A DNA stretch of 52,217 nucleotides from a virus. The notes beneath the pieces are model-generated. The model worked only from the letters and a program-made list of their open reading frames with translations, did no database searches and was not told the DNA's origin. A program made the translations under genes and the position numbers. Positions within the stretch are counted from its first letter, which is position 1; each line of letters begins with the position of its first letter. Location of the stretch: positions 1 to 52,217 of the IMG/VR virus record IMGVR_UViG_3300028400_000009. One strand, written 5' to 3'. Below, piece after piece: positions 5,498-50,203 of this stretch.

Positions 5498-6598
5498 ATG
5501 ACAGAAGATAACACAGTATTGAAAACATTGAAAGTCAGAGTTAAAGATAATCGCAAGAATATCCTTAACCGTATGGCGTTCGATATTAATCAAGTGTGGA
5601 ATAAAGCCAACGAGATAACATCAGAAGAATGCTATGAGCCTATTCCAGAAGTCGGTTATGTTTTCAATAACATTTCAGCCTTCGATATTCAAAAACGAAT
5701 AAAAGGTATCCGTAAAGAACGAGATATGATTATTGGTGCAGGCTCAGCACAAAAAATAATTGCTATCCATGCTAAAGCCAGAAAACAATTTGAAAAAGTA
5801 AAACTTAAATGGCGTACCAGTGGTGGTAGTCGAAAGTCATTAGGTTTTGTACCGTTTAAATCAGGTGCTATTAAGTGGGTGAACGGTCAAATTAGATTCT
5901 GTGGTTATTATTTTAAGGTATGGGATAGCTACGGATTGTCAAAATATGACTTTAGGTCTGGCTCATTCTCACAAGATGCGCGTGGTCGCTGGTATCTTTC
6001 TATTGTTGTTAAAGTTCAGCAGGAAAAATCAAAAGGTACAGGTCAAATAGGCATTGATTTAGGGCTTAAAACAACGGCTGTATGTTCAGATGGTACGACT
6101 TTAGAGCGCAAACAATATTATAGAAATATGGAAAGCAAACTGGCTATGGCGCAACGCGCCAATAAGAAAAAGCAAGTTAAGAATATACACGCAAAAATTA
6201 AGAATCGTAGAGCTGATACAAATCATAAATTCAGCACAAAATTAGTAAAAGAAAACTCATTGATTGTAGTTGGTAATGTATCTAGCTCTAAATTAGCTAA
6301 AACTAAAATGGCTAAATCTGTACTAGATGCTGGCTGGTATCAATTAAAAAGTATGCTTGATTATAAATCCAAAGGGATGCAAGTATGCTATGTGGAAGTC
6401 AATGAAGCGTACACTACCCAGGCTTGTTCGTGTTGCGGCTGTATTAGCAGCAATAGTCCGAAAGGTATGGATTCGCTTGGAATAAGAGAATGGACTTGTG
6501 CAGAGTGTGGCACAAAGCATGATAGAGATATTAATGCGGCTGAGAACATTCTCCGTCTGGGGCATCAGACGCTCGCGGGAGGAATCCCCCGCTTTTAA
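5498..6598 (+). CDS. tnpB: TnpB-type RNA-guided nuclease (IS605 OrfB)
   Basis: 366 residues. RuvC-I motif GIDLGLKTT carries Asp187; the zinc ribbon is CSCC (310-313) / CAEC (334-337); the RuvC-III motif HDRDINAAENI carries Asp344. The usual RuvC-II segment reads IVVGNVSSSK, with Gly where most TnpB proteins have the catalytic Glu; a Glu is present in VNEAYTTQ (303), a position used by TnpB groups with a rearranged active site. So it may still cut. TnpB cleaves DNA guided by an RNA from the element's right end. A TATAAT at 5483-5488 (TTGATT 16 bases upstream) puts the transcript start almost at the ATG. Full length, no frameshift. Confidence 0.9.
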   Translation: MTEDNTVLKTLKVRVKDNRKNILNRMAFDINQVWNKANEITSEECYEPIPEVGYVFNNISAFDIQKRIKGIRKERDMIIGAGSAQKIIAIHAKARKQFEKVKLKWRTSGGSRKSLGFVPFKSGAIKWVNGQIRFCGYYFKVWDSYGLSKYDFRSGSFSQDARGRWYLSIVVKVQQEKSKGTGQIGIDLGLKTTAVCSDGTTLERKQYYRNMESKLAMAQRANKKKQVKNIHAKIKNRRADTNHKFSTKLVKENSLIVVGNVSSSKLAKTKMAKSVLDAGWYQLKSMLDYKSKGMQVCYVEVNEAYTTQACSCCGCISSNSPKGMDSLGIREWTCAECGTKHDRDINAAENILRLGHQTLAGGIPRF

Positions 6599-48378: not shown

Positions 48379-49059
48379 CTATTTTTTTATATACTTCTGC
48401 ATCCTAGCGTCAGCTTCATTGTTGATCCTTTCTTCGTCATACTCATAGCCAACCCAGTTATCAACTCCATTGGCTTCTAATTCAGACAGCTCAATATCAC
48501 TCTTCAATAGTCTTTTGAGTTCTGTGTATCCAATACTAACCTTTCCATCTGATTGAGATTTTAATAAACTCAATGCGTTTCTAGCTTTGCTAATTGATTC
48601 GTTTATTGAATCTAGCTCTTTCTTTGCATTAAGACATTTACGCTCCCATGCCTTTACTTCAGCATCAAAATCATTAATTTTTGCTTCGTGGGCTTTAATT
48701 TCACTTTCTAGTCCTATATTCTTCTCATTCAGTGTAGCGTTCAATGCCGATAATTTAGCTATGTGTTCTTGCAGTGGCTTAATCTGCAAGAACTCTACTG
48801 GTTCATCATGTAGTAAACGATTCTCCACCATGACTACAATAGATGCCTGTGAGTCGTTGATTATATCTATGACCTCCTGAGCTTCCACGCATGTGTGTCT
48901 TGTTGGTGTTCCTTGGTTTCCTACCATGCACTCAGTACACCACTGAGCACCCTCAAATTCATCAGCATATTTCGGTGTTAATTTAATCTCACTGAAATCA
49001 TCCGATACTTTTCTTATTATTACGCATGGGTTGTTCATGTAGTATTTTACGTTTTTCAT
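48379..49059 (-). CDS. Coiled-coil protein with a Cys cluster
   Basis: 226 residues. Start NPCVIIRKVSDDFSEIKL, Cys cluster WCTECMVGNQGTPTRHTC (about 41-58), an 80-residue coiled coil (ALNATLNEKNIGLESEIKAH, EVKAWERKCLNAKKELDS), helical end. No family; early gene with its own repressed promoter. Could be a recombination or defence-related factor. Confidence 0.7.
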   Translation of the reverse strand: MKNVKYYMNNPCVIIRKVSDDFSEIKLTPKYADEFEGAQWCTECMVGNQGTPTRHTCVEAQEVIDIINDSQASIVVMVENRLLHDEPVEFLQIKPLQEHIAKLSALNATLNEKNIGLESEIKAHEAKINDFDAEVKAWERKCLNAKKELDSINESISKARNALSLLKSQSDGKVSIGYTELKRLLKSDIELSELEANGVDNWVGYEYDEERINNEADARMQKYIKK

Positions 49060-49111
49060 AGTTCACCTCATTAATTTAACCCCACTATACCAGCCAACCA
49101 CGTTTTACTGT

Positions 49112-49129
49112 ATACCCATTAAGGGGTAG
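49112..49129 (-). promoter_or_regulatory. 18-bp operator and promoter before the 49059 gene
   Basis: ATACCCATTAAGGGGTAG; on the minus strand it reads into GGGTATACAGT, giving a TATACA -10 right after the operator. Ribosome-binding site GAGGTGA follows before ATG. Confidence 0.6.
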
Positions 49130-49628
49130 GGTGGTTGTTATTTGCTCTCCTGTTTGTTTAGACAATAGCAAGGCATTAGAGGGGTTTAAGTGGTTTCCCA
49201 AGAAAACTAATCCTCTGTTTCTGTTATTTAATATGCGTGTATCAATACCAACCAATATATCAGGCTTCGTTATTTGTGTGCAAAACTTTCATTATTGCAT
49301 CGGGAACTGTACATCTAACCGTTTATCAACCATGTTCTTTTTTGCTGGCTCTCTAAAGTTTGCATGAATTAACTTAAACTTTAGCAGTCAAAAAATTATA
49401 CGAATTTAGGTTGATGGTGTATTACCACTTTTAAGTACCTGTTTTGTTCCGCAGAATTGCATAGATTAGCGGACGCTCCCCCTCTAGTCATTGTCTATGC
49501 GCGACTGGAACGGGTTGGATATTGTCTGCACTTGATCTCGCTCAAGCCGTTTTATTAATAGTTTAAGTCACTACTCGACAGGCGTAGGCGGTATTGAATG
49601 CTTGATTTAAGCAGATTTAGAAGATTAT
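49130..49628. other. Gap without a confident gene
   Basis: About 500 bases. On the minus strand, frame pieces such as NFREPAKKNMVDKRLDVQFP and ILVGIDTRILNNRNRGLVF read like protein but are split by stops, so a decayed gene is possible. Structure: GCATAG (49479-49484) / CTATGC (49495-49500 region) and CTTGA/TCAAG at about 49530-49546, both weak. The plus frame at 49131-49367 has no start signal and an odd composition. Confidence 0.35.
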
Positions 49629-49657
49629 TTGCTTTTTGATTCAGCTTGAAATATAAT
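49629..49657 (+). promoter_or_regulatory. Promoter of small RNA 2
   Basis: TTGCTT (49629-49634), 17 bases, TATAAT (49652-49657). Copy of the small RNA 1 promoter layout. Confidence 0.65.
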
Positions 49658-49663
49658 CTTTCT

Positions 49664-49777
49664 AACTTGTGGTGACCGTCTAAAGCAACACAAGATTTTG
49701 ACTAGTATACCTAACCTGTTTTGTATTAGTCAATATTTGCATAATCAAAGCCCCTTATTCACGTTTGGGGCTTTTTT
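49664..49777 (+). ncRNA. Putative phage small RNA 2
   Basis: About 114 bases with no reading frame. Hairpin a CTTGTG (49666-49671) / CACAAG (49689-49694). Hairpin b TTGACTA (49698-49704) / TAGTCAA (49727-49733), extended by ATAC/GTAT. Terminator hairpin AAAGCCCC (49747-49754) / GGGGCTTT (49767-49774) with T6. Shares leader, stem a and order with small RNA 1; hairpin b differs in bases but both fold. It lies just before the Tad2-like gene. Confidence 0.65.
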
Positions 49778-49787
49778 GTGGATGTGG

Positions 49788-49793
49788 TATAAT
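49788..49793 (+). promoter_or_regulatory. -10 box for the Tad2-like gene
   Basis: TATAAT at 49788-49793; the -35 (TTGGGG, 17 bases upstream) is inside the preceding terminator. Promoter is weak or needs help. Confidence 0.5.
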
Positions 49794-49823
49794 GATAATT
49801 GATTATTAATAAGGAGTAACAAG

Positions 49824-50087
49824 ATGGATTTTGGAAAAGCGCTAGAAAATATAAAAGCAGGAATGAAGATGCAACGCGAAGGATGGAACGGGAAAGGCAT
49901 GTTTATCTTTCTTGTGCCAGGGTCAACTTTTAAAGTTAATCGCAAGCCGCTTCTTGGAATCTATCCAGAAGGCACTGAAATTAACTATCGCGGGCATATC
50001 GACATGAAAACGGCTGATGATATGGTTGTTCCGTGGCTTGCATCACAGACAGATATTCTTGCTGATGATTGGAAAGTGGTTGAATAA
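49824..50087 (+). CDS. Tad2-like protein (DUF2829), probable anti-Thoeris
   Basis: 87 residues, complete. DFGKALENIKAGMKMQREGW, NGKGMFIFLVPGSTF, IDMKTADDMVVPWLASQTDI and LADDW are the hallmarks of DUF2829 (PF11195). Members of this family include Tad2 of phage SPO1, which tightly binds the gcADPR signal made by Thoeris. Ribosome-binding site AAGGAG. Function inferred by family; ligand residues not checked. Confidence 0.88.
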   Translation: MDFGKALENIKAGMKMQREGWNGKGMFIFLVPGSTFKVNRKPLLGIYPEGTEINYRGHIDMKTADDMVVPWLASQTDILADDWKVVE

Positions 50088-50140: not shown

Positions 50141-50178
50141 AAAGCCCGAATTAAGAACCTCTTAGTTTGGGCTTTTTT
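50141..50178 (+). terminator. Terminator of the Tad2-like gene
   Basis: AAAGCCC (50141-50147) / GGGCTTT (50169-50175), interior pairing AAGA/TTAG, T6 run. Same loop-closing sequence as the two small RNA terminators. Confidence 0.8.
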
Positions 50179-50203
50179 GTTTCTGCAAATAACACGCAAA
50201 AGA

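What the first reader, a model, noticed from the sequence alone, without database searches (positions are those of the whole stretch)
49824..50087. Tad2-like (DUF2829) anti-Thoeris candidate
The DUF2829 blocks are clear and the family includes Tad2, which sequesters the Thoeris signal gcADPR. It has its own small unit with promoter and terminator. It points to Thoeris-like or related cyclic-nucleotide defences in the host range.
Basis: established knowledge. Interest (0 to 1): 0.7.

Follow-up and report, generated by a model that had tools for sequence, protein, structure and literature searches.

The report
Phage Tad2-family anti-Thoeris sponge protein
This phage carries an 87-residue gene of the known Tad2 family, proteins that soak up the alarm molecules bacteria make when infected; the gene is intact and belongs to a common but structurally unstudied branch of that family, so it is a solid but fairly ordinary find.

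Summary
The ORF at 49824-50087(+) is real: 87 aa, with the Pfam Tad2-like domain (PF11195) over its full length (E 2.4e-26). Its AlphaFold2 model (pLDDT 96.7) matches solved Tad2 structures at Z 11-13; the first unrelated chain scores 5.7. Relatives differ from it mostly at third codon positions, so the gene is under protein-level constraint. All residues invariant across the family are present, and the segments reported to form the gcADPR pocket are conserved. The gene stands alone between two strong terminator hairpins, with a good ribosome-binding site and a plausible extended -10.

New here: in a sample of 76 distinct phage Tad2 domains not chosen by their insertion, the insertion after beta-2 falls into discrete classes. 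The window belongs to one (FLVPGSxFxVNRxPLLGIYPEGTxINYxxHIDM; 20 of 76) that has no solved member. It keeps Q75, as gcADPR-binding SPO1 and HgmTad2 do; His-ADPR-binding ModTad2 and most of its class do not. It lacks HgmTad2's long insertion, reported to bind cyclic dinucleotides. Best inference: a gcADPR-type Thoeris sponge; ligand binding is untested and His-ADPR or another signal is not excluded. One Limnohabitans genome carries both a prophage with this class and type I Thoeris. New member of a known kind.

The parts
49824..50087 (+). Tad2-family (PF11195, formerly DUF2829) sponge gene, 87 aa
   Evidence: Pfam E 2.4e-26; AF2 pLDDT 96.7; VIA-align Z 13.2 to 9EIB, 13.0 to 8SMG (SPO1 Tad2)
49878..49904 (+). 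Codons 19-27 (EGWNGKGMF): loop beta1-beta2 block, one wall of the reported gcADPR pocket
   Evidence: pocket described in PMC12043709; R18, W21, G23 invariant in 58 sequences, N22 nearly so
49917..49997 (+). Codons 32-58 (PGSTFKVNRKPLLGIYPEGTEINYRGH): class-defining insertion after beta2
   Evidence: shared by 20 of 76 distinct domains sampled without using the insertion; no solved structure has it
50001..50072 (+). Codons 60-83 (DMKTADDMVVPWLASQTDILADDW): beta3-beta4 loop, beta4, alpha3; the other wall of the reported pocket, with W71, S74, Q75, D77, D82, W83
   Evidence: Q75 is in 21/21 of this class, as in SPO1 and HgmTad2, and is V in ModTad2
49747..49777 (+). Upstream terminator-like hairpin AAAGCCCC..GGGGCTTTTTT isolating the gene
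   Evidence: z -3.79, in a 43-nt fold; sequence
49785..49793 (+). Extended -10-like element TGGTATAAT (plausible promoter; chance-level motif)
49811..49816 (+). Shine-Dalgarno AAGGAG, 7 nt before the ATG
50141..50180 (+). Downstream intrinsic terminator (16-pair stem, T run)
   Evidence: -20.4 kcal/mol, z -6.15

Best explanation
The gene encodes a phage sponge protein of the Tad2 family. Shown: family, fold, conserved residues, intact coding frame. Inferred: on infection it is made from its own small transcript and assembles into the Tad2 tetramer. Two composite pockets, lined by the GWNGKGMF loop of one protomer and the WLASQTDILADDW segment of another, then bind and hold a TIR-made ADP-ribose signal, most probably gcADPR (3'cADPR or 2'cADPR) of type I Thoeris. 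ThsA is therefore not activated and the cell does not abort the infection. The protein does not degrade the signal. Without the long insertion used by HgmTad2 it probably does not bind cyclic dinucleotides.
For: Pfam PF11195 E 2.4e-26, full length. Sequence matches to 8V3E, 9EIB, 8KBI, 8SMF and 8WJD. Model pLDDT 96.7, Foldseek E 2.9e-10, Z 11.4-13.2 to ten Tad2 entries against 5.7 for the next chain. R18, W21, G23, D77, D82, W83 are invariant in 58 sequences and present here. Pocket elements as described in PMC12043709: identity of loop block 18-27 is 8/10 to SPO1, 9/10 to HgmTad2, 10/10 to ModTad2; of segment 72-83, 8/12, 10/12 and 7/12. Q75 is in 21/21 of this class and in SPO1 and HgmTad2 (gcADPR binders), but in only 4/16 of the ModTad2-like class (Fisher p 1.5e-6). 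A Limnohabitans genome holds a prophage with a same-class Tad2 (L066, 73% identical) and a ThsB+ThsA(SIR2-STALD) pair of type I Thoeris, where STALD occurs in only 3 of 399 genomes of that order. Third-position-biased divergence shows protein-level selection.
Against: No binding data. No member with this insertion is solved, so the geometry of the pocket rim is unknown; insertion identity to SPO1 Tad2 is only 3/27. The closest solved relative by sequence and fold binds His-ADPR, not gcADPR. Six of seven same-class bacterial carriers have no detectable STALD-type ThsA. Tetramer formation was not tested. The individual ligand contacts in the primary Tad2 papers could not be read (not held).
Confidence: 0.68

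Rival explanations
1. A Tad2 sponge whose main target is His-ADPR of type II Thoeris, like ModTad2.
For: ModTad2 (8V3E/9EIB) is the best sequence match (E 7e-23) and top fold match (9EIB is the complex with His-ADPR); its N-terminal pocket loop is 10/10 identical and its insertion nearly equal in length. MoTad2 is reported to inhibit type II Thoeris (PMC13299392).
Against: The ModTad2-like class carries a different insertion and mostly lacks Q75 and P70 (V/I/G at 75, T at 70), both kept in the window's class. Segment 72-83 is closer to HgmTad2 (10/12) than to ModTad2 (7/12).
Confidence: 0.15
2. The class-specific insertion gives this branch another or additional ligand (for example a cyclic dinucleotide, a cyclic trinucleotide or another ADPR derivative), so it is a Tad2-type sponge but not mainly anti-Thoeris type I or II.
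For: The insertion is unusually conserved inside the class and absent from all others. In HgmTad2 an insertion in the same place makes a second, cyclic-dinucleotide site (PMC12043709).
Against: The insertion is short and lacks the KSLP motif of the HgmTad2 class. SPO1 Tad2, also short, does not bind 3'3'-cGAMP (PMC11722364). The conservation could serve folding or tetramer packing.
Confidence: 0.12
3. An AcrIIA7-type inhibitor of Cas9.
For: The relative solved as 8KBI/9KZR is deposited as 'Inhibitor of Type II CRISPR-Cas system'/AcrIIA7.
Against: The same protein (HgmTad2) is solved with 1',2'-cADPR and cGG in its pockets, and the residues conserved here map to those pocket elements.
Confidence: 0.03
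4. A degenerate or chance ORF without function.
For: None found.
Against: Profile, fold, invariant residues, third-position-biased substitutions and flanking expression signals.
Confidence: 0.01

Closest known systems
ModTad2 (Myroides odoratus prophage, PDB 8V3E/9EIB, His-ADPR bound)
   Same: Same fold (Z 13.2), identical GWNGKGMF loop block, nearly the same length
   Different: Different insertion sequence (7/27 identical); V instead of Q at 75, T instead of P at 70; belongs to another insertion class
HgmTad2 / AcrIIA7 (PDB 8KBI-8KBM)
   Same: Same fold (Z 12-12.6); C-terminal pocket segment WLASQTD-LA-DW 10/12 identical
   Different: HgmTad2 has a much longer KSLP-type insertion reported to bind cyclic dinucleotides; the window lacks it
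SPO1 Tad2 (Gp34.65, PDB 8SME/8SMF/8SMG, gcADPR bound)
   Same: Same fold (Z 13.0), SQTD and invariant W/R/D residues, similar length
   Different: About 40-47% identity over aligned positions; insertion almost unrelated (3/27)
phrog_872 / phrog_1048 phage families
   Same: Best PHROGs matches (E 1e-28 to 1e-30), unnamed there
   Different: Both profiles are longer (172 and 211 positions) with an extra N-terminal part; the window gene is the bare Tad2 domain

Membership tests
Tad2-like family (PF11195, formerly DUF2829) | Score above the Pfam gathering threshold over the whole domain | tested here: met
   92.5 bits against 25; residues 1-86, profile 1-73/73
Tad2-like family (PF11195, formerly DUF2829) | Tad2 fold | tested here: met
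   AF2 pLDDT 96.7; Foldseek E 2.9e-10; VIA-align Z up to 13.2, next family 5.7
Tad2-like family (PF11195, formerly DUF2829) | Family-invariant residues R18, W21, G23, D77, D82, W83 | tested here: met
   58-sequence alignment and independent sample of 76
Tad2 anti-Thoeris sponge (SPO1 type) | gcADPR pocket elements (loop b1-b2, loop b3-b4, b4, loop b4-a3, a3) conserved | tested here: met
   Segment-level test only: 8/10 (18-27), 5/12 (60-71) and 8/12 (72-83) identity to SPO1; W21, N22, W71, S74, Q75, D77 kept. Individual contact residues from the primary paper could not be checked
Tad2 anti-Thoeris sponge (SPO1 type) | Homotetramer | not testable with these tools
   Only monomer prediction available
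Tad2 anti-Thoeris sponge (SPO1 type) | Binds gcADPR and rescues phage from Thoeris | not testable with these tools
   Needs biochemistry and phage challenge
ModTad2-type His-ADPR sponge | ModTad2-like insertion and 70/75 residues (T70, V/I/G75) | tested here: not met
   P70 and Q75 with a VNRxPL insertion; class comparison. These features are my class markers, not published ligand contacts
HgmTad2-type double sponge (gcADPR + cyclic dinucleotide) | Long KSLP-type insertion between b2 and b5 | tested here: not met
   GWNG-to-DW core is 64 aa in the window against about 80 in HgmTad2; no KSLP motif
AcrIIA7 anti-CRISPR | Inhibits type II-A Cas9 | not testable with these tools
   Name shared only through the HgmTad2 deposition

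The most novel reading that the evidence does not exclude
The VNRxPLLGIYPEGT insertion marks a separate specificity class of Tad2 sponges, common in environmental phages, that recognises an immune signal other than (or in addition to) gcADPR, His-ADPR and the known cyclic dinucleotides; finding its ligand would reveal which TIR or nucleotide defence those phages face.
Probability: 0.15. Interest if true: 0.55.

Novelty: new member of a known kind. Interest (0 to 1): 0.27.

Why it matters
It adds an intact Tad2 to an orphan phage and, more usefully, shows that phage Tad2 domains fall into discrete insertion classes whose pocket residues differ with the class. About a quarter of a sample not chosen by insertion is in the window's class, which has no structure in the PDB. 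One small protein from this class would be a cheap test of whether the insertion sets the ligand, and would help predict from sequence which nucleotide defence a phage is armed against.

Tried and rejected
Close relatives of the phage: none in the phage records by megablast; terminase at most 43% identical to any phage and without relatives in IMG/VR, so synteny in near relatives could not be used. Conserved partner gene: none recurs next to same-class Tad2 genes; the most frequent neighbour is an upstream P22-type portal gene in 7 loci, so the gene behaves as mobile single-gene cargo. Co-occurrence with Thoeris: 1 of 7 same-class carriers with STALD-ThsA against 3/399 background; too few lysogens for a firm test, and the zeros are not proof of absence. 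Weak ThsB_TIR hits in Erythrobacter G002 and in G492 lie in long frames (379-837 aa) and were not taken as Thoeris. First estimate of insertion conservation was biased because the search patterns came from the window sequence, so it was replaced by a scan with the motif GWNGKGMF outside the insertion. Anti-CRISPR reading considered and set aside. Primary Tad2 papers (Yirmiya 2024, Li 2024, Sabonis 2025, Hadary 2025 preprint) are not held, so published contact residues could not be mapped one by one, and whether the window's class has been assayed in them is unknown.

Full report
What is there. The window is a 52,217-base IMG/VR virus record of an orphan tailed phage: portal and terminase genes, a DnaB helicase and an O-like replication protein, no tRNA or Rfam RNA, terminase at most 43% identical to any known phage. 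At 49824-50087(+) there is an intact 87-aa ORF.

Family. The protein matches Pfam PF11195 'Tad2-like' at E 2.4e-26 over its whole length, the unnamed PHROGs families 1048 and 872, and every solved Tad2 in the PDB. PADLOC and NCBIfam have no model for it, so those blanks mean nothing. An AlphaFold2 model built on 58 window and locus sequences has mean pLDDT 96.7; Foldseek and VIA-align put ten Tad2 entries on top (Z 11.4-13.2), with the first unrelated chain at Z 5.7. R18, W21, G23, D77, D82 and W83 are invariant in the alignment and present here.

Real gene, own unit. Against relatives 77-78% identical in protein, changes fall mostly on third codon positions (17/10/56 against L002). The gene is bracketed by two terminator hairpins (49747-49777, z -3.8; 50141-50175, z -6.2), and AAGGAG stands 7 nt before the ATG. 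The extended -10 at 49785-49793 is well placed, but the motif is at chance frequency in the window.

Ligand. From the literature held: SPO1 Tad2 binds gcADPR and does not bind 3'3'-cGAMP (PMC11722364). The gcADPR pocket is built from loop b1-b2, loop b3-b4, strand b4, loop b4-a3 and helix a3 of different protomers, while cyclic dinucleotides sit at an insertion between b2 and b5 (PMC12043709). MoTad2 binds His-ADPR and blocks type II Thoeris (PMC13299392; PDB 9EIB title). So the family call does not by itself give the ligand.

To see where the window stands, I first aligned same-branch relatives. That sample was biased because its search patterns came from the window, so I drew a second sample using only the loop motif GWNGKGMF. 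It gave 76 distinct Tad2 domains. They fall into discrete insertion classes: A, FLVPGSxFxVNRxPLLGIYPEGTxINYxxHIDM (20 of 76, plus the window); B, ModTad2-like VPAxSYPAQTGAAK (15 plus ModTad2); C, HgmTad2-like KSLP (9 plus HgmTad2); and others. In a FastTree tree the window groups with class A sequences, the group of 20 tips that holds it and nearly all of the class with modest support, 0.69. Q75 is present in 21/21 of class A, and in SPO1 and HgmTad2, but in only 4/16 of class B, where P70 mostly becomes T (p 1.5e-6, not corrected for shared ancestry). That 70 and 75 contact the ligand is inferred from the pocket description, not checked on coordinates. On this evidence gcADPR is favoured over His-ADPR, and a cyclic-dinucleotide site like that of HgmTad2 is unlikely. 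No class A member is among the solved structures.

Hosts. Same-class genes were found in seven bacterial genomes (the class of the seventh, G635, is judged from 72% identity over the full length). In one, a Limnohabitans MAG, the gene lies in a prophage joined to chromosomal genes (L066), fused behind another N-terminal domain. The same assembly encodes adjacent ThsB (PF08937) and ThsA (SIR2 + STALD) genes of type I Thoeris. STALD was found in 3 of 399 genomes of that order. This fits the anti-Thoeris reading, but it is one case in seven, and a MAG could be mis-binned.

Mechanism, shown and inferred. Shown: family, fold, residues, constraint, expression layout. Inferred: tetramer, signal binding, gcADPR as main ligand, protection from Thoeris. 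Verdict: a new member of a known kind; the class-specific insertion is the only point with some novelty, and whether this class has been assayed in papers I could not read is unknown.

Noticed in passing
window 9605, 12000(-), 19607, 49112, 50644, 51111, 51621: Near-palindromic operator-like motif ATACCCACTATKGGGTAT at seven places (9 strand matches, 0.06 expected), four of them at the right end near small-gene starts; looks like a phage repressor or activator site set.
   Followed up: partly
window 48379-49059(-): 226-aa protein with a T7 Gp5.9-like (RecBCD inhibitor) domain at its C-terminal end (residues 174-213, Pfam E 3.4e-9) behind a longer, probably partly coiled-coil N-terminal part; a second likely counter-defence gene next to the Tad2 gene.
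   Followed up: partly
window 49060-49740: About 680 bases without a convincing ORF, followed by the terminator-like hairpin at 49747-49777; could hold an untranslated transcript. No Rfam match.
   Followed up: no
window 5498-6598(+): TnpB/IS605 OrfB-type (Cas12f1-like TNB) gene in the phage, 67% identical to one on a Methylobacter plasmid; a weak hint of a gammaproteobacterial host.
   Followed up: partly
L066, L089 (Limnohabitans MAG, genome G004): A prophage with a same-class Tad2 domain fused behind another N-terminal domain, in an assembly that also encodes a type I Thoeris ThsB/ThsA pair.
   Followed up: yes
seven same-class loci, e.g. L017 2024-4159: A P22-type portal gene lies upstream of the same-class Tad2 gene in seven phages (portal identity checked in L017); a major head protein gene follows in L002. 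An odd place for a counter-defence gene.
   Followed up: partly
L101-L179: Phage Tad2 domains vary in length from 49 to 95 residues (GWNG to DW) because of their insertions, in a few recurrent sequence classes, with pocket-region residues 70, 73, 75 and 76 changing with the class.
   Followed up: partly
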